Source: an uncultured Clostridia bacterium (GTDB taxonomy: Bacteria > Bacillota_A > Clostridia > Christensenellales > CAG-138). Taken from it: a DNA stretch of 11,126 nucleotides. Location of the stretch: contig CAMORL010000046.1 in the NCBI GenBank assembly GCA_946623765.1, positions 1-11,126 on the forward strand, read 5' to 3'. The position numbers and the translations under genes were made by a program. A model generated the notes under the pieces. The model ran no database searches. It saw only the letters and a program-made list of their open reading frames with translations, and was not told the DNA's origin. Position 1 is the first letter of the stretch. Each line of letters opens with the position of its first letter. Below, piece by piece: positions 248 through 8,896 of this stretch.

Positions 248-1468
248 TTACCAGACCAGTTCTTCCGCGTGTACCGGATGCAGGTTCTTTTTGATGCTCG
301 CGATCCTGCCGTTGCGCACCTTGACCACGCGGTCCGCCATCTTGGCGATCTCGGGGTTGTGCGTGACCATCATGACCGTCGCGCCCTGGTTGCGCACGAT
401 GTCCTCAACGACCGAAAGCACCTCGATGCTCGTCGTATAGTCGAGCGCCGCCGTCGGCTCGTCGGCAAGGATCAGCTTCGGTTTTTTCACGATTGCGCGG
501 GCAATGGACACGCGCTGCTGCTGACCGCCGGACATCTGTCCCGGATAGTTGCCCGCACGGTCCGAAAGACCGACCTTTGCGATGGCGTCCGCAGCGTCCA
601 TCGGATCGCTCACAAGCTCTGCGATAAACTGCACGTTTTCGAGCGCCGTAAGGTTCGGCATCAGGTTATAGGACTGGAAGATGAAGCCGATGTATTCGCG
701 GCGGTACTTGGTGAGTTCGGCGTCGGAGGGGTGCGAGAAATCTTTGCCCTCGACCAGAAGCTCGCCGTCGGTCAGAAAGTCCATGCCGCCCACGATGTTC
801 ATCATCGTGGATTTGCCGCAGCCGGATTCGCCGAGCACGACCACGAACTCGTTCTTGTAAACGTCGAGGTTGATTCCCTTCAGCACCTGCAGCACGCCGT
901 CGCCGGACGGAAACTCCTTCGTGACGTTGCGGAGCGTTGCGAGAATCTCCTTCTTTTCGCCGAGATCGACGATCAGACCCTTTTCGTCGATCGTGATCGC
1001 CGCGAGCGACGCCATGCGCTCGCACAGCTTCAGCTCGTCCGCGTCATAGAGGCTGCCGTCCTTTTTGTTGACGATCTGCACGCAGCCGATGACGTCGTGC
1101 AGGTTGTTGAGCGGCACGCAGATCATCGTTCTGGTCACGACGCCGCCGTCGTCGAATACGGAGCCCTCGAAGCGATCGTCGTTTGCGGCATCCTCGATCA
1201 TGATCGACTTGCCGGTCTTGGTGACGACGCCCTCGATGCCGAGTCCGTTCTCGACGGAGATATTGGAGATGTCCGCCGGTCCGATGTGGAACATCGGGGT
1301 CAGACGCTCCGTTTTCGCATCCAGAAGCCAGATCGCTCCGGCTTCGCTGTTCAGCGTATTGACGATGATTTCCAGACTGCCGGACAGCGCGTCGTCAAGG
1401 TTGTCTACCTCGAGAAGCTGTTCCATGATCTGCCATGTCGCTTTGGTAAACCGTTTTTCTTCAGGCAT
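248..1468 (-). CDS. GAF domain fused to ABC transporter ATP-binding subunit (LolD/MacB type)
   Basis: This 406-aa cytoplasmic protein probably powers an ABC system whose permease is not in the window. Residues about 15-165 form a GAF sensor domain. Residues about 177-400 are a complete ABC ATPase, with Walker A GESGCGKST at 213-221, Q-loop Q265, signature MSGGQ at 312-316, Walker B KLILADEPT at 331-339 with catalytic E337, and H-loop H370. The order of motifs and the FQSYNLMPNLTALENV stretch are typical of the LolD/MacB/FtsE group, which pairs with FtsX-like permeases. Those ATPases usually have about 220-250 residues, so the GAF half is an addition. AAGGAG lies 8 nt before the ATG. The gene follows the STAS gene by 72 nt in one apparent operon. 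A small ligand or redox signal could gate the ATPase through the GAF domain, but this is inference and the ligand is unknown. Confidence 0.93.
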   Translation of the reverse strand: MPEEKRFTKATWQIMEQLLEVDNLDDALSGSLEIIVNTLNSEAGAIWLLDAKTERLTPMFHIGPADISNISVENGLGIEGVVTKTGKSIMIEDAANDDRFEGSVFDDGGVVTRTMICVPLNNLHDVIGCVQIVNKKDGSLYDADELKLCERMASLAAITIDEKGLIVDLGEKKEILATLRNVTKEFPSGDGVLQVLKGINLDVYKNEFVVVLGESGCGKSTMMNIVGGMDFLTDGELLVEGKDFSHPSDAELTKYRREYIGFIFQSYNLMPNLTALENVQFIAELVSDPMDAADAIAKVGLSDRAGNYPGQMSGGQQQRVSIARAIVKKPKLILADEPTAALDYTTSIEVLSVVEDIVRNQGATVMMVTHNPEIAKMADRVVKVRNGRIASIKKNLHPVHAEELVW

Positions 1469-1540: not shown

Positions 1541-1837
1541 TCACTCAACGGTCAGGATGTCCGAAAAACCCGTGACCTCGAAGATCTCGAGAATCATTTC
1601 GTTGGCATGGACGACCTTCATGGAGCCCTGCCGGTTCATGGTCTTCTGCGCGGACAGCAGCACCCTGAGTCCCGCGGAGGAGATGTAATCCAGGTTTTCG
1701 AAATCCAGCGTCAGCGTCTCCGTTCCGGGTACGGCTTCCAGTAAAACCGCCTCCAGTTCGGGTGCGGTTACGGTGTCCAGACGTCCGGAAAGTGCAATTT
1801 TCAAAGCGGTTCCGTTCTTTTCTTGTTTAACAGTCAC
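1541..1837 (-). CDS. STAS-domain anti-sigma factor antagonist-like protein (SpoIIAA/RsbV family)
   Basis: The 98-aa product is a single STAS domain. It has the LSGRLDTVTAPEL strand-turn-helix near residues 17-29 and the switch loop LDYISSAGLRVLL at 49-61. Ser53 or Ser54 aligns with the serine that a cognate kinase phosphorylates in SpoIIAA and RsbV. I chose the GTG at 1837 because GAAAGGGG lies just upstream and because translation from there begins at a normal STAS N-terminus (MTVKQEKNGTALKIALSGRL). The longer frame from 1951 would begin inside the promoter. No anti-sigma kinase or PP2C phosphatase is visible. The neighbour is a GAF-ABC protein, so this may be a partner-switching module controlling transport rather than a classical sigma-factor switch. 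The family call is strong. The target is unknown. Confidence 0.9.
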   Translation of the reverse strand: MTVKQEKNGTALKIALSGRLDTVTAPELEAVLLEAVPGTETLTLDFENLDYISSAGLRVLLSAQKTMNRQGSMKVVHANEMILEIFEVTGFSDILTVE

Positions 1838-1853
1838 AACGTTTCCCCTTTCT

Positions 1854-1891
1854 GACCGTTTCGGAAGAACTGCTCCGTTCCGCACGCGGTC
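1854..1891 (-). other. Stem-loop in the leader of the STAS/GAF-ABC transcript
   Basis: On the minus strand GACCG (1891-1887) pairs with CGGTC (1858-1854). Inside it CGGAA (1882-1878) pairs with TTCCG (1866-1862) around an 11-nt loop. The structure ends just before the GAAAGGGG ribosome binding site. It could affect translation or transcript stability. It has no U tract, so it is not a terminator. I do not recognise a riboswitch class. Confidence 0.35.
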
Positions 1892-1922
1892 CCTTTTCTG
1901 CAAATGAATATCTGTTCTTTTT

Positions 1923-1951
1923 ATTATATACCATCCGCATGCTTTTGGCAA
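1923..1951 (-). promoter_or_regulatory. Sigma-A promoter of the STAS/GAF-ABC operon
   Basis: On the minus strand TTGCCA (1951-1946) and a perfect TATAAT (1928-1923) are separated by 17 bp. Transcription would start near 1916, giving a leader of about 80 nt before the GTG start at 1837. The local AT-richness contrasts with the GC-rich surroundings. Confidence 0.78.
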
Positions 1952-3132: not shown

Positions 3133-5748
3133 ATGAACGGAACGGTGAAAAAACTGACCGCCGGAATCCTGGCGCACGTGGACGCGGGAAAGACCACGCT
3201 GTCCGAAGCGCTTCTGTTCCGCGCGGGCATGCTGCGAAAACTCGGACGCGTCGATCACAGGGACGCGTTTTTGGATACGCATGCCCTCGAACGCGAACGC
3301 GGCATCACGATTTTTTCCAAGCAGGCGAGGATCCGGACGGACGCGCTTGAACTGACGCTTCTGGACACGCCCGGGCACGCGGATCTTTCCGGCGAGACCG
3401 AGCGCGCGATCGCCGCGATGGACGTCGCGATCCTTGTCGTCAGCGGCGTCGACGGCGTTCAGGCGCATACGGAAACACTCCGGACGCTTCTGATGCGCGG
3501 ACACGTGCCGACGTTCGTGTTCGTCACCAAAATGGACGCGTCGAACCGCAGCCGGGAGGAACTTCTGAACGACCTCCGCGCCTGTTTCGGCGACGGGTTT
3601 TATCCGCTTCCCGCCCCGGACGAAACGCTTGCGATGCTCGACGAAACCGCGCTGGAGCGCTATATGGAGACCGGACGCGTTTCCGACGCGGAAATCACCC
3701 GGCTCATCCGCGCGCGAAAGCTCTTTCCCGTGTCCTTCGGCTCGGGGCTGAAGCTGGACGGCGTGGACGAATTTCTGACGCTGCTCGCCCGCTATGCGCC
3801 GGAACCCGTGCGTCCGCCGGTGTTCGGCGCGAAGGTGTTCAAGATCGGGCACGACCCGCAGGCGGGCAGGCTGACCTATCTCAAAATGACCGGCGGCACG
3901 CTCTCCGTGCGCGACACGCTGCGCTATACCGGCGCGGACGGCGAAATCCGGACGGAAAAGGCGGCGCAGCTGCGGCTGTATTCCGGCGCAAAGTTCGAAA
4001 CGGCGCAGCAGGTTTTTGCGGGCGACGTCGCTGCGGTCACGGGACTGTCGCAAACGCGTCCCGGGCAGGGACTCGGCGCGGAGCCGGACGCCGAAACGCC
4101 TCTTCTGAATCCCGCGCTCGGGTACCGGATCGGACTTCCCGCGGGCACGGACGCGCGCACGGTGCTGCCGAAGCTCCGGGAGCTGGAAGAAGAGGAACCG
4201 CTGCTGCACATCGTCTGGCAGCCGGCGCTCGGCGAGCTGCAGGCGCAGCTGATGGGCGCGCTGCAGAAGGAGGTCCTGACCTCGCTGATCCGCGAGCGCT
4301 TCGACCTCGACGTGACGATCGGCGCGGGACACATCCTGTACCGGGAGACGGTTTCGGAACCGGTCGAAGGCGTCGGGCATTTTGAGCCGCTGCGGCACTA
4401 TGCCGAAGTGCATCTGCTCATCGAACCCGGCGAGCCCGGCAGCGGTCTGCGCTTCGCGTCCGCGGTGCCGGAAAACGAACTCGATCTGAACTGGCAGCGG
4501 CTGATACTCACGCATCTTGCGGAAAAGGAGCACCGCGGCGTGCTCACCGGCTCACCGCTGACCGACGTAAAGATCACGCTGATTGCGGGACGCGCGCACC
4601 TCAAACACACCGAGGGCGGCGATTTCCGGCAGGCGACCTATCGCGCGGTGCGGCAGGGGCTGATGCGGGCAAAGAACGTGCTGCTGGAGCCGTATTACCG
4701 CTTCCGTCTCGAGGTGCCGTATCCGGACATCGGGCGCGCAATCAACGATATTCAGGCAATGGGCGGCGAGCACGACGCGCCGTTTGAAGCCGGCGGACGG
4801 ATGGTGCTGACCGGCGCGGCGCCGGTGTCCCGGATGGCGGATTACATGACCGAGGTCGCGGCGTACACGCGCGGCAAGGGGCGCTTCTCCTGCCGCGTGG
4901 AGGGCTATCGCCCCTGCAGGAACGCCGATGCGGTGATCGAAGAGATCGGCTACGATCCCGAAGCGGACCTCGACAACACGCCGGACAGCGTGTTCTGCGC
5001 GCATGGCGCAGGGTTCATTGTGAAATGGAAGGACGTGCCGGACTATATGCACCTCGACACCGGTTTCGGAAAAACGCCTGTTTCGGAACAGCAGACCGCG
5101 GTGCGACGGAAAAACCTGAACCTCGACGAAAAGGAACTGGAAGCGATCATGGAGCGGGAGTTCGGTCCCGCCCCAAAGACGGTTCTGTACGCGCCGCGCA
5201 CGGTGCGGGCACAAGATCCGCCTCAGCCGGTTGAAAAAACGCCGGAACGCATCATCGTGGACGGGTACAACGTGATCTTCGCGTGGGAGGAGCTGCGCGC
5301 GCTGTCCGAACAAAGCCTCGACCTTGCACGGGCAAGGCTTATCGAGCTTCTGATCGGCTACCGGAGCTATACGGCGGCGGAAATCGTGTTGGTGTTCGAT
5401 GCGTATCAGCGTCCCGGAAACGCCGGGACGAAGGAAACGGAAGCCGGACTGCACGTCGTCTACACGGGCGAGAACGAGACTGCGGACATGTACATCGAAC
5501 GGCTTGTCGGAGAGATCGGCAAAAACGTGACGGTGCGGGTCGTGACGTCCGACTCGCTGATCCGGCTCGGCGCGCTTCGCGCAGGGGTGCTGCGCACCTC
5601 GTCGAAGGCGTTCGAACAGGAGGTAGCCCGCGTGACGGAACGGATCGCGGCGGAACTGCAAAAGAATCGGGAAACGGTATGGAACATCGGGAATTCTTTA
5701 AGCGCATCGACGATCTCGGCGATCGCTCCGAACGGCGCGGAATCGTAA
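3133..5748 (+). CDS. TetM/EF-G-like ribosomal GTPase fused to a YacP/Rae1-type NYN ribonuclease domain
   Basis: This 871-aa protein has two parts. Residues 1 to about 650 are a translational GTPase of the TetM/TetO class: G1 AHVDAGKT at 14-21, switch-region RERGITI at 54-60, G3 DTPGH at 78-82 with the catalytic His82, and G4 TKMD at 132-135. Elongation-factor-like domains follow, including HTEGGDFR at 492-499 in the domain IV region. After a linker, residues about 707-845 match YacP/Rae1, the Bacillus enzyme that cuts mRNA in the ribosomal A site. They carry VDGYNVIFAWEEL with D710, VFDAY with D756, ENETAD with E782 and D785, and TSD with D807. TetM proteins have about 640 residues, so the nuclease is a full extra domain. 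The domain IV tip is not the TetM SPVSTPADFR type, so drug resistance is not shown. The ATG at 3133 has a weak ribosome binding site; GTG at 3145 is possible. The last 70 nt overlap the YlmH-like gene. Confidence 0.93.
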   Translation: MNGTVKKLTAGILAHVDAGKTTLSEALLFRAGMLRKLGRVDHRDAFLDTHALERERGITIFSKQARIRTDALELTLLDTPGHADLSGETERAIAAMDVAILVVSGVDGVQAHTETLRTLLMRGHVPTFVFVTKMDASNRSREELLNDLRACFGDGFYPLPAPDETLAMLDETALERYMETGRVSDAEITRLIRARKLFPVSFGSGLKLDGVDEFLTLLARYAPEPVRPPVFGAKVFKIGHDPQAGRLTYLKMTGGTLSVRDTLRYTGADGEIRTEKAAQLRLYSGAKFETAQQVFAGDVAAVTGLSQTRPGQGLGAEPDAETPLLNPALGYRIGLPAGTDARTVLPKLRELEEEEPLLHIVWQPALGELQAQLMGALQKEVLTSLIRERFDLDVTIGAGHILYRETVSEPVEGVGHFEPLRHYAEVHLLIEPGEPGSGLRFASAVPENELDLNWQRLILTHLAEKEHRGVLTGSPLTDVKITLIAGRAHLKHTEGGDFRQATYRAVRQGLMRAKNVLLEPYYRFRLEVPYPDIGRAINDIQAMGGEHDAPFEAGGRMVLTGAAPVSRMADYMTEVAAYTRGKGRFSCRVEGYRPCRNADAVIEEIGYDPEADLDNTPDSVFCAHGAGFIVKWKDVPDYMHLDTGFGKTPVSEQQTAVRRKNLNLDEKELEAIMEREFGPAPKTVLYAPRTVRAQDPPQPVEKTPERIIVDGYNVIFAWEELRALSEQSLDLARARLIELLIGYRSYTAAEIVLVFDAYQRPGNAGTKETEAGLHVVYTGENETADMYIERLVGEIGKNVTVRVVTSDSLIRLGALRAGVLRTSSKAFEQEVARVTERIAAELQKNRETVWNIGNSLSASTISAIAPNGAES

Positions 5749-6419
5749 CGAAAACGGATTTTCTGACGCCTGCGGAGCAGATCGCGCTGACGCAGTACGA
5801 AAAAAGCGACCGGCTGCTGCTGACCGGCGGACAGGACGGCTGCGAGCGGCAGATCGCGTTCTTTCTGCCGGAATACATGGAGAAACCGGACTTCGATCCT
5901 TCGGCGTACATCCGCGCGGTCAGAATCGAAGCGCACTTCGGTACGCCGGGACACCGGGATTATCTCGGCGCGGCGCTCGGGCTCGGACTTTCACGCGAGG
6001 CGATCGGCGACATCCGCATCTTCGGCGAAACGGCATATCTCTTCTGTCTGCCCGCCGTGCAGCAGGTGCTGTCGGACGAGCTCGACAAGGTCGGACGCGT
6101 CGGTGTGACGGTCTCGCCCTGCGCGCTTTCGGACGTGCCGGCGGCGATCGTGAAAACAAAAACCGTCTCGTTTACCGTAAAAAGCCTGCGCTTCGACGCG
6201 GTGCTCGGCGCGACGTTCGGCATGAGCCGCACCGCGGCGGCGGAGTGCATTCGCGCGGGGCTTGCAAGCCTCAACTACACCGTCTGCGAACACACGGACG
6301 CCCCGATCGGGGAGGGCGATATTCTGTCGGTGAAGGGGCACGGCAAGGCGCGGCTCGTTTCGATCGGCGGACGGTCGAAAAAGGACCGGCTGTTCGTCGA
6401 GTCGGAAGTGTATCTTTGA
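5679..6419 (+). CDS. ylmH: YlmH-like S4-domain RNA-binding protein (RqcP2 family)
   Basis: The 246-aa product matches the YlmH family. Its N-terminal half has the FFKRIDDL start and FLTPAEQ at 28-34. The middle has the family-typical HRDYLGAALGLGLSREAIGDI at 92-112. An S4 RNA-binding domain lies at about 168-228 (SLRFDAVLGATFGMSR through GDILSVKGHGKARL). B. subtilis YlmH binds ribosomal complexes and takes part in ribosome-associated quality control, where RqcH adds tails to stalled peptides. The gene starts inside the upstream GTPase-nuclease gene with a 70-nt overlap in another frame. I prefer the ATG at 5679 because the protein from there begins like other YlmH proteins, while residues read from the earlier ATG at 5283 are low-complexity antisense-like sequence. 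The large overlap suggests translational coupling. Unlike B. subtilis ylmH, it is not next to division genes here. Confidence 0.85.
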   Translation: MEHREFFKRIDDLGDRSERRGIVTKTDFLTPAEQIALTQYEKSDRLLLTGGQDGCERQIAFFLPEYMEKPDFDPSAYIRAVRIEAHFGTPGHRDYLGAALGLGLSREAIGDIRIFGETAYLFCLPAVQQVLSDELDKVGRVGVTVSPCALSDVPAAIVKTKTVSFTVKSLRFDAVLGATFGMSRTAAAECIRAGLASLNYTVCEHTDAPIGEGDILSVKGHGKARLVSIGGRSKKDRLFVESEVYL

Positions 6420-8458: not shown

Positions 8459-8585
8459 AGCACGGTACGAGCAGCTCGTGTTCAACGAGGAAGCGATGCG
8501 CATGAACTGCGGACGGACGTTCACCGCAGAGGAGGCGTCGGCTCTGTTTGCCGCAAAAAGAAAAACATCGGAGGAAAAGGCATGA
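8421..8585 (+). pseudogene. Truncated GNAT acetyltransferase remnant
   Basis: The 54-aa frame (52 aa from the ATG at 8427) begins MPMRLKLYKKGDKARYEQLV and continues FNEEAMRMNCGRTFTAEEAS. The latter stretch resembles a segment near the N-terminus of some clostridial GNAT N-acetyltransferases. The rest of a GNAT fold of about 150-180 residues, including the acetyl-CoA-binding motif, is absent. After residue 45 the sequence turns into a lysine-rich tail containing the GGAGG of the next gene. It overlaps the acetyltransferase tail upstream and the glutaredoxin start downstream (ATGA). It lacks a good ribosome binding site of its own. It could instead be a genuine small protein retained for translational coupling. 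Confidence 0.5.
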
Positions 8586-8896
8586 TTACGGTTTACACAA
8601 GTCCGCTGTGCCCGGATTGCCGGGAGTGCAAGGTGAATTTTGACGAACACAAGCTCGCATACGAGGAGATCGACATCACGGCAAGCATGAAAAACCTCAA
8701 GGCGTTTCTGAAGCTCAGGGATACGCTTGCCGTATTCGACCCGTGCCGCGCGCAGGGCAGCGTCGGGATTCCGGCGATCGTAAGCGGGGACGGCAGCGTC
8801 ACGCTCGACTGGGAAGGGTATCTGTCGGAACGGGGACTTCCGGTCGTGTACCGGGAGGAACGCCCCGCCTGCCGTCTCGACGGCAGCGGCTGCTGA
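8582..8896 (+). CDS. Glutaredoxin-like thiol oxidoreductase
   Basis: The 104-aa product has a thioredoxin-fold layout. It starts with strand ITVYTSPLC, followed by the redox motif CPDC at 10-13 and another cysteine at 16. The cis-proline motif GIPAIV is at 63-68 with Pro64 or Pro65 in the expected place before a strand, and DWEGYL follows near 76-81. The family reduces disulfides or handles thiol adducts in the cytoplasm. The tail carries two more cysteines (97 and 104, the last residue), which is unusual and could form a resolving or metal site. GGAGG lies 5-6 nt before the ATG, which overlaps the stop of the GNAT remnant. This is the last gene of the plus-strand run before the hairpin at 8953-8991. 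Confidence 0.88.
   Translation: MITVYTSPLCPDCRECKVNFDEHKLAYEEIDITASMKNLKAFLKLRDTLAVFDPCRAQGSVGIPAIVSGDGSVTLDWEGYLSERGLPVVYREERPACRLDGSGC

What the first reader, a model, noticed from the sequence alone, without database searches (positions are those of the whole stretch)
3133..5748. Ribosomal-protection-type GTPase fused to a Rae1/YacP A-site ribonuclease domain
Seen: a complete TetM-like GTPase with all G motifs, followed by a complete NYN domain closely matching YacP/Rae1 (VDGYNVIFAWEEL, VFDAY, ENETAD, TSD). Known: TetM-class GTPases bind near the A site and dislodge ligands, and Rae1 enters the A site and cuts mRNA. Inference: one polypeptide could use GTP-driven binding to deliver a nuclease to stalled or drug-blocked ribosomes, cutting the mRNA and resetting the ribosome. 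Similar long translation-factor GTPases may already be in databases under generic names. I know of no experimental description of this activity.
Basis: partly seen in the sequence, partly recalled or inferred. Interest (0 to 1): 0.85.

Follow-up and report, generated by a model that had tools for sequence, protein, structure and literature searches.

The report
Ribosome GTPase carrying an mRNA-cutting domain
A protein of gut-type Clostridia joins a ribosome-binding GTPase to the mRNA-cutting enzyme Rae1; the fusion was noted in print in 2015, but genome comparison now suggests that it has replaced the free enzyme in many species, which makes its role at stalled ribosomes testable.

Summary
In detail: window 3133-5748 (+) is one frame of 871 aa, an EF-G/Tet-type translational GTPase with a Rae1/YacP nuclease domain. 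The architecture is not new: Atkinson 2015 (PMC4342817, passages) reported it in "ten species of clostridiales" and suggested an RNase mechanism. New here: (1) The fusion looks like a relocated Rae1. It is the only NYN_YacP match in 40 of 40 fusion genomes; where rlmB and sigH are linked in fusion genomes, the old rae1 slot is empty in 20 of 22 and holds a decayed remnant in one, though the window's own branch could not be checked. (2) The GTPase is not Tet(M): 25-28% identity, under NCBI's cut-off, another domain IV tip. (3) A C-terminal tail found in 15 of 15 free Rae1 proteins is absent from 82 of 87 fusions, this one included. (4) ylmH, a ribosome quality-control gene, lies directly downstream in the window and in 23 of 80 loci. 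Best reading: GTP-driven ribosome binding delivers an A-site mRNA nuclease to stalled ribosomes. No activity has been shown.

The parts
3133..5748 (+). Fusion gene: translational GTPase + Rae1/YacP NYN nuclease, 871 aa
   Evidence: ORF; Pfam; aligned with 86 relatives
3157..3801 (+). GTPase (G) domain, residues 9-223; G motifs AHVDAGKTT, RGITI, DTPGH, TKMD
   Evidence: PF00009, 151.4 bits; conservation
3829..4056 (+). EF-G domain 2, residues 233-308
   Evidence: PF22042
4330..4674 (+). EF-G domain IV, residues 400-514
   Evidence: PF03764
4588..4629 (+). Domain IV tip GRAHLKHTEGGDFR (residues 486-499), unlike Tet(M) GLYYSPVSTPADFR
   Evidence: K491-R499 identical in the 87 aligned rows (21 of these were found with a search pattern that included the tip)
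4678..4923 (+). EF-G domain V, residues 516-597
   Evidence: PF00679
4924..5052 (+). Extra C-terminal piece of this GTPase group (residues 598-640, with SVFCAHGAGFIVKWKDVPDYMH), absent from Tet(M); unfused relatives end at or soon after it
5053..5250 (+). Linker, residues 641-706, model confidence under 50 at 648-664 and 678-702
5125..5169 (+). Conserved linker helix DEKELEAIMEREFGP (residues 665-679)
   Evidence: E668, L669, I672 identical in 87 of 87; helix 664-677
5251..5718 (+). NYN_YacP (Rae1) nuclease domain, residues 707-862
   Evidence: PF05991, 144.1 bits; B. subtilis YacP 5mq8/5mq9, E 5e-20
5679..6419 (+). ylmH (S4-type ribosome quality-control factor); its ATG, as I place it, lies 70 nt before the end of the fusion gene
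   Evidence: PF17774 in the longer ORF 5283-6419, at 5916-6128

Best explanation
The gene encodes the Rae1 of its host in a new form. In an ancestor of a large group of Clostridia, rae1 left its old place between rlmB and sigH and was joined, through a flexible linker, to the end of an existing EF-G-like translational GTPase that is not a tetracycline-resistance protein. The GTPase binds the factor site of the ribosome and reaches into an empty or stalled A site with its special domain IV tip. This brings the nuclease to ribosomes that are not translating. After GTP hydrolysis domain IV swings out, the tethered NYN domain takes its place and cuts the mRNA at the A-site codon, as free Rae1 does in B. 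subtilis. The cut ribosome then goes to tmRNA or to splitting and quality control, in which YlmH takes part. Shown by sequence: the fusion, the kept active-site residues, the lack of another NYN_YacP gene in fusion genomes, the empty ancestral slot (in other branches of the family), the missing tail, ylmH as neighbour. Inferred: ribosome binding, order of events, cleavage, link to rescue.
For: Single frame, all domains. NYN active-site residues identical in 87 of 87 and aligned with B. subtilis YacP. Exactly one NYN_YacP match, in a frame of 597-1,069 aa, in each of 40 fusion genomes looked at out of the 80. In a class sample of 293 genomes 192 have the domain, 188 of them once; of the 149 genomes whose place was listed, 84 have it in a frame of 840 aa or more and 59 in one of 216 aa or less, one genome (G324) counting in both, and 7 lie between. 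Free rae1 lies with both rlmB and sigH in 12 of 15 loci that I chose. In 42 fusion genomes rlmB and sigH share a locus in 22; no rae1 is found there in 20, a decayed remnant in 1, intact rae1 in 1. Fused NYN domains and 13 of 15 free ones fall on two sides of a branch with 100/98 support. The tail motif is in 15 of 15 free proteins and 5 of 87 fusions; R166P in B. subtilis Rae1 is among mutations read as loss of function (PMC6613710 passages). ylmH directly downstream in 23 of 80 loci, and the only copy next to the fusion in 20 of the 38 genomes in which it was found. YlmH is a potential quality-control factor in B. subtilis (PMC11317155 abstract).
Against: No biochemical test exists here. The domain IV tip and Rae1 should compete for the A site. 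pTM is 0.60 and the linker is poorly predicted, so the position of the NYN domain is unknown. The empty-slot evidence does not cover the window's own branch: in four ylmH-type genomes (G002, G005, G013, G026) sigH was not beside rlmB. In 14 of the 20 empty slots the gap between rlmB and sigH is 120-601 nt, so something else or unseen DNA is there. Unfused GTPases exist in genomes without a NYN_YacP match (G065, G068, G094, G108, G218, G328), so the GTPase has a job that needs no nuclease. ylmH is next door in a minority of loci, all on one side of a branch of the fusion tree, with 5 gains or losses. MutS2 (39 of 40 over cut-off), SmpB (36 of 40) and RqcH by its NFACT domain (36 of 40) are still found, so the fusion replaces none of these. 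Two free Rae1 proteins (L107, L108) group with the fused ones, so fusion is not strictly required. G160, G214 and G248 have a second NYN_YacP match whose place I did not see.
Confidence: 0.6

Rival explanations
1. It is a tetracycline-resistance ribosomal protection protein that gained an RNase, which adds to resistance (the suggestion of Atkinson 2015).
For: Placed in the Tet subfamily by Atkinson 2015. Some relatives are named TetM/TetW/TetO/TetS family in public records (with the NYN domain, without). Best NCBIfam match is tet_protect. Two fused relatives lie on records filed as plasmids, of 518 and 252 kb.
Against: Score 363.9 bits against a cut-off of 775. Only 25-28% identical to Tet(M)/Tet(O)/Tet(S). 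The tip, which in Tet proteins dislodges tetracycline, differs. The tip pattern occurs in 90 of 293 genomes of a class sample, and the fusion takes the place of a gene of the rlmB-sigH cluster; that this is unlike mobile resistance is my inference. Only 2 of 1,282 plasmid records with a match cover 80% of the protein, and one of these also carries secA.
Confidence: 0.1
2. The nuclease domain cuts rRNA or tRNA (maturation or damage), with the GTPase as the ribosome anchor.
For: [quoted passage not shown]
Against: The domain groups with Rae1, whose described activity is A-site mRNA cleavage (PMC6613710 and PMC12320835 passages), and stands in for it.
Confidence: 0.12
3. The two halves work independently; the fusion only keeps them co-expressed, and Rae1 acts as it always did.
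For: Poorly predicted linker; unfused forms of both parts exist, together in G249, G265, G299 and G317.
Against: Absence of the Rae1 tail in 82 of 87 fusions and a conserved helix in the otherwise variable linker point to joint work.
Confidence: 0.13
4. The GTPase mainly acts after the cut: the nuclease cleaves first, then the GTPase clears or splits the ribosome.
For: Both parts aim at the A site, so the order is open; EF-G moves tRNA and, with RRF, splits ribosomes.
Against: Replacement of free Rae1 and the missing tail are better explained by delivery first; no splitting partner was seen.
Confidence: 0.2

Closest known systems
Clostridial Tet proteins with a YacP-like NYN domain (Atkinson 2015, PMC4342817)
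   Same: Same added domain on the same kind of GTPase; this is very probably a member of that described group (I did not see its list of accessions)
   Different: There: ten species, a few sentences, read as antibiotic resistance. Here: far wider spread, origin from the rae1 gene of the rlmB-sigH cluster, no second NYN_YacP gene, non-Tet tip, ylmH neighbour
Rae1/YacP of Bacillus subtilis (5mq8/5mq9)
   Same: NYN domain with the same acidic residues
   Different: A free protein, co-transcribed with the rlmB homologue yacO in B. subtilis; here the domain sits on a GTPase and the C-terminal tail of free clostridial Rae1 is missing
Tet(M)/Tet(O) ribosomal protection proteins
   Same: EF-G-like translational GTPase
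   Different: 25-28% identity, other domain IV tip, an extra C-terminal piece in the fusion, score below the curated cut-off
EF-G (elongation factor G)
   Different: 27% identity in that alignment; different tip; carries a nuclease
MutS2 (B. subtilis ribosome splitting factor)
   Same: Works-like comparison only: a stall factor that joins an NTPase to a nuclease-type (SMR) domain
   Different: Unrelated domains; no mRNA cleavage seen for MutS2 (PMC10897456 passages); still present in 39 of 40 fusion genomes

Membership tests
Rae1/YacP endoribonuclease | NYN_YacP domain over Pfam cut-off | tested here: met
   144.1 bits against 24.6
Rae1/YacP endoribonuclease | Acidic residues and VDGYN motif of the NYN site | tested here: met
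   87 of 87 for D710, N713, D756, D785, D807; aligned with 5mq8/5mq9. That these are the catalytic ones is recalled from the NYN/PIN family
Rae1/YacP endoribonuclease | C-terminal tail [LIM][DE]x[LIMV]R[RKL] of free clostridial Rae1 | tested here: not met
   15 of 15 free proteins, 5 of 87 fusions, not in the window (pattern widened after a first look). My own feature, not a published criterion
Rae1/YacP endoribonuclease | Free gene beside rlmB and sigH | tested here: not met
   12 of 15 free genes with both; the window shows neither gene among its annotated ORFs, and no whole genome is held
Rae1/YacP endoribonuclease | Translation-dependent mRNA cleavage in the A site | not testable with these tools
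   needs biochemistry
Tetracycline-resistance ribosomal protection proteins | Score over the curated NCBIfam cut-off | tested here: not met
   NF012153 363.9 bits, cut-off 775
Tetracycline-resistance ribosomal protection proteins | Domain IV tip of Tet(M) type | tested here: not met
   KHTEGGDFR against SPVSTPADFR; the role of the tip loops is, that SPV is the key part is recalled
Tetracycline-resistance ribosomal protection proteins | Confers resistance | not testable with these tools
   needs an assay
EF2-family translational GTPases | G motifs and domains 2, IV, V | tested here: met
Ribosome-associated quality control (RQC) | Conserved gene association with an RQC factor | tested here: inconclusive
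   ylmH adjacent in 23 of 80 loci, one side of the tree only
Ribosome-associated quality control (RQC) | Genetic or physical link to RqcH/tmRNA pathways | not testable with these tools
   needs genetics

The most novel reading that the evidence does not exclude
A large part of the Clostridia use a GTP-driven ribosome rescue nuclease: a dedicated EF-G-like factor recognises stalled or vacant A sites and hands a tethered Rae1 domain into them to cut the mRNA, and in a branch of Oscillospiraceae it is made together with YlmH so that cutting feeds straight into quality control of the unfinished protein.
Probability: 0.3. Interest if true: 0.85.

Novelty: new variant of a known kind. Interest (0 to 1): 0.6.

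Why it matters
As far as I recall, Rae1 has few known targets and no known recruiter. If a GTPase has taken over its delivery in many gut Clostridia, the fusion tells what Rae1 needs to find its ribosomes, and gives a single-protein system to test how A-site mRNA cleavage starts ribosome rescue. It also warns that some genes filed as TetM-family resistance genes (two such records seen) may be ordinary translation factors.

Tried and rejected
Reading ylmH as rqcP: rejected after the abstract of the paper on YlmH; RqcP is another S4 protein (notes 1 and 2 still carry the wrong name). The idea that the fusion stands in for MutS2 or tmRNA: rejected, both are found. The idea that the whole gene neighbourhood is conserved: rejected; the window's DNA-alkylation gene, small membrane ORF, DUF1284 gene and ORF 6853 were found in 0 of the 83 other loci held (80 genome loci and L001-L003). 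Beyond ylmH the widest shared neighbours are in 17 loci (by eye an ABC transporter, not tested) and fewer; one gene is shared by 7 loci, all of them with ylmH. Fold comparison of the nuclease part was not decisive: the list was filled by the GTPase and says nothing on residues after about 638. Promoter and terminator scans found no more than shuffles give. Three Rae1 papers (PMC6152456, PMC5412759, PMC10351889) are not held, so they may hold remarks on fusions that I could not see; that no functional study of the fusion turned up rests on the paper searches only.

Limits of the samples. A first pattern for the Rae1 tail gave 11 of 15 free and 2 of 87 fused; I widened it after seeing the rows, to 15 of 15 and 5 of 87. 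In A3, 65 rows and the window were found without regard to the tip, but 21 rows are genome loci found with two peptide patterns, one of them the tip; the ten unfused GTPases L084-L093 were found by the tip and so carry it by construction. In the class sample 17 of 84 fused genomes lack an exact match to the tip pattern, so the tip varies in the wider family. 'Fused' goes by frame length; 67 of the 84 also have the tip pattern. The 40 genomes, the 15 free loci and the 42 rlmB genomes were my choices, not random draws. In the trees only part of the aligned rows was used: 43 fused and 15 free NYN rows, 43 fused and 11 unfused GTPases with Tet(M); there L003 fell among the fused rows on a long branch. 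Five genome loci without one long open frame in my caller (L006, L007, L015, L017, L073) were left out of the fusion tree (75 loci and the window).
Full report
What is there. Window 3133-5748 (+) is one open reading frame of 871 aa. Pfam finds GTP_EFTU at 9-223, EF-G domain 2 at 233-308, domain IV at 400-514, domain V at 516-597 and NYN_YacP at 707-862. The NYN part matches B. subtilis YacP/Rae1 (5mq8, 5mq9) at E 5e-20 over 138 residues. In an alignment of 87 fusions, window included, the others 49-81% identical to it, the NYN residues D710, N713, D756, D785 and D807 are identical in 87 of 87, and the GTPase residues counted (17, 20, 21, 59, 78, 81, 82, 133, 135) in 86 or 87. So both active sites appear to be under constraint.

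Prior art. Atkinson 2015 (PMC4342817; [quoted passage not shown] The architecture is therefore known. Public records name such genes 'translation factor GTPase family protein' or 'TetM/TetW/TetO/TetS family'. Eight paper searches turned up no functional study of the fusion; three Rae1 papers are not held.

Spread. A protein search with residues 600-871 gave 7,363 hits at E<=1e-5 among 7,996 scored candidates, of which the best 120 were listed. In a sample of 293 genomes of the class of G039 (a Mediterraneibacter), 192 have NYN_YacP, 188 of them once and 4 twice. Of the 150 listed places in 149 genomes, 84 genomes have it in a frame of 840 aa or more, 59 in one of 216 aa or less, one genome (G324) counting in both, and 7 lie between, some perhaps cut by contig ends. 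67 of the 84 also hold the exact tip pattern of the GTPase; 17 do not. The other 43 genomes with a match were not listed by place.

The fusion looks like a relocated Rae1. In 40 of 40 fusion genomes, taken from the 80 loci, there is one NYN_YacP match and it lies in a frame of 597-1,069 aa. Free rae1 sits with both rlmB and sigH in 12 of 15 loci, and with at least one of them in 14 of 15. I looked at rlmB in 42 fusion genomes. In 22 of them sigH lies on the same locus of about 3.7 kb; in 20 of these no rae1 is found there, in G324 an intact rae1 remains besides the fused copy, and in G035 the slot holds a decayed remnant with stops. The gap between rlmB and sigH is 23-39 nt in 6 of the 20 and 120-601 nt in the other 14. 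Four genomes of the ylmH type, nearest to the window, had no sigH beside rlmB, so the slot could not be judged on the window's own branch. In a tree of 58 NYN domains, 13 free ones lie on one side of a branch with 100/98 support, and all 43 fused ones plus 2 free ones on the other. Those 2 free ones (L107, L108) come from genomes G249 and G265 that carry the GTPase as a separate gene: a two-gene form of the same pair, either older than the fusion or a later split.

The GTPase is its own group. Free relatives of 618-665 aa end at or soon after the piece SVFC...W...MH, which Tet(M) lacks. The domain IV tip reads KHTEGGDFR in 87 of 87 aligned fusions, 66 of which were found without regard to it; in ten unfused relatives it is present by construction, since it was the search pattern, and L003, found otherwise, has VHTVGGDFR. 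Tet(M) has SPVSTPADFR there. Identity to Tet(M), Tet(O) and Tet(S) is 25-28%, and the NCBIfam tetracycline score is 363.9 against a cut-off of 775. A role in tetracycline resistance is therefore unlikely, though untested.

Signs that the two parts work together. The AlphaFold2 model (mean pLDDT 80.7, pTM 0.60) has good domains and a poor linker at 648-702, interrupted by a helix at 664-677. That helix, DEKELEAIMEREFGP in the window, has E668, L669 and I672 identical in 87 of 87, while the linker as a whole is the least conserved part (mean majority fraction 0.54 against 0.75 for the GTPase and 0.71 for the NYN part). Free Rae1 proteins end in a tail with [LIM][DE]x[LIMV]R[RKL] in 15 of 15; fusions have it in 5 of 87, all in the branch that holds the Lachnospiraceae rows, and the window does not (pattern widened). 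In B. subtilis the change R166P in Rae1 is counted among mutations read as loss of function (PMC6613710, passages); that residue 166 lies in this tail is my inference. The simplest reading is that the GTPase has taken over the ribosome binding that the tail helped with.

Neighbour. The ATG that I take as the start of ylmH lies 70 nt before the end of the fusion gene. ylmH is found directly downstream of the fusion in 23 of 80 genome loci; by my ORF caller it overlaps the fusion by 11-17 nt in 9 of them and by 25 nt in one. Not every locus had room downstream: of 76 fusion rows (75 loci and the window) 69 had 900 nt or more. In 40 fusion genomes YlmH is found in 38, once each, and next to the fusion in 20. 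On the fusion tree all 21 placed cases (the window and 20 loci) lie on one side of a branch with SH-aLRT 88, and the label needs 5 changes, at least 3 forced by well supported branches. YlmH binds 50S-peptidyl-tRNA complexes and, when overproduced, can replace RqcP in alanine tailing in B. subtilis (PMC11317155, abstract and passages). RqcH (by its NFACT domain) is found in 36, MutS2 over cut-off in 39 and SmpB in 36 of the 40 genomes, so the usual pathways are there for a cut ribosome to enter. Adjacency is suggestive, not proof.

Mechanism. Free Rae1 is described as a ribosomal A-site endoribonuclease (passages), and the tip loops of domain IV of Tet and EF-G act at the tetracycline and peptidyl-tRNA sites. 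Both should not fit there at once (inference). The likely order is: the GTP form binds the stalled ribosome, the tip probes the A site, hydrolysis withdraws domain IV, the tethered NYN domain enters and cuts. Each of these steps is inferred. Rivals are listed with their tests.

Verdict.

Noticed in passing
window 248-1468 (-): A 406-aa protein joins an N-terminal GAF domain to a MacB/LolD-like ABC ATPase; the GAF part could make the transporter respond to a small ligand.
   Followed up: no
window 1541-1951 (-): Anti-sigma-factor antagonist family protein, TIGR00377 over cut-off.
   Followed up: no
window 8582-8896 (+): Glutaredoxin-like protein nearest to the YruB and UXX-star families, below their cut-offs, with a CPDC motif.
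   Followed up: no
L118 (genome G035), slot between rlmB and sigH: Decayed rae1 remnant with stops in the old place of rae1, in a genome that carries the fusion.
   Followed up: partly
residues 595, 622, 624, 640 of the fusion (window 4915-5052): Two Cys and two His (C595, C622, H624, H640) identical in 86-87 of 87 fusions at the end of and behind domain V; a metal site is possible, but H624 is not kept in several unfused relatives.
   Followed up: partly
G065, G068, G094, G108, G218, G328 (loci L088-L093): Unfused GTPase of this group in genomes without a NYN_YacP match (three are listed as without a match, the other three are missing from the table of matches); its function without a nuclease is unknown.
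   Followed up: partly
L162, L163 (IMG/VR contigs): Two contigs filed as viral encode part of such a GTPase at one end of the stretch held (60% and 53% identical over residues 344-647 and 5-651); perhaps host DNA beside a prophage.
   Followed up: partly
G160, G214, G248: Two NYN_YacP matches each; the second place was not listed, so a second fusion or another architecture is open.
   Followed up: no
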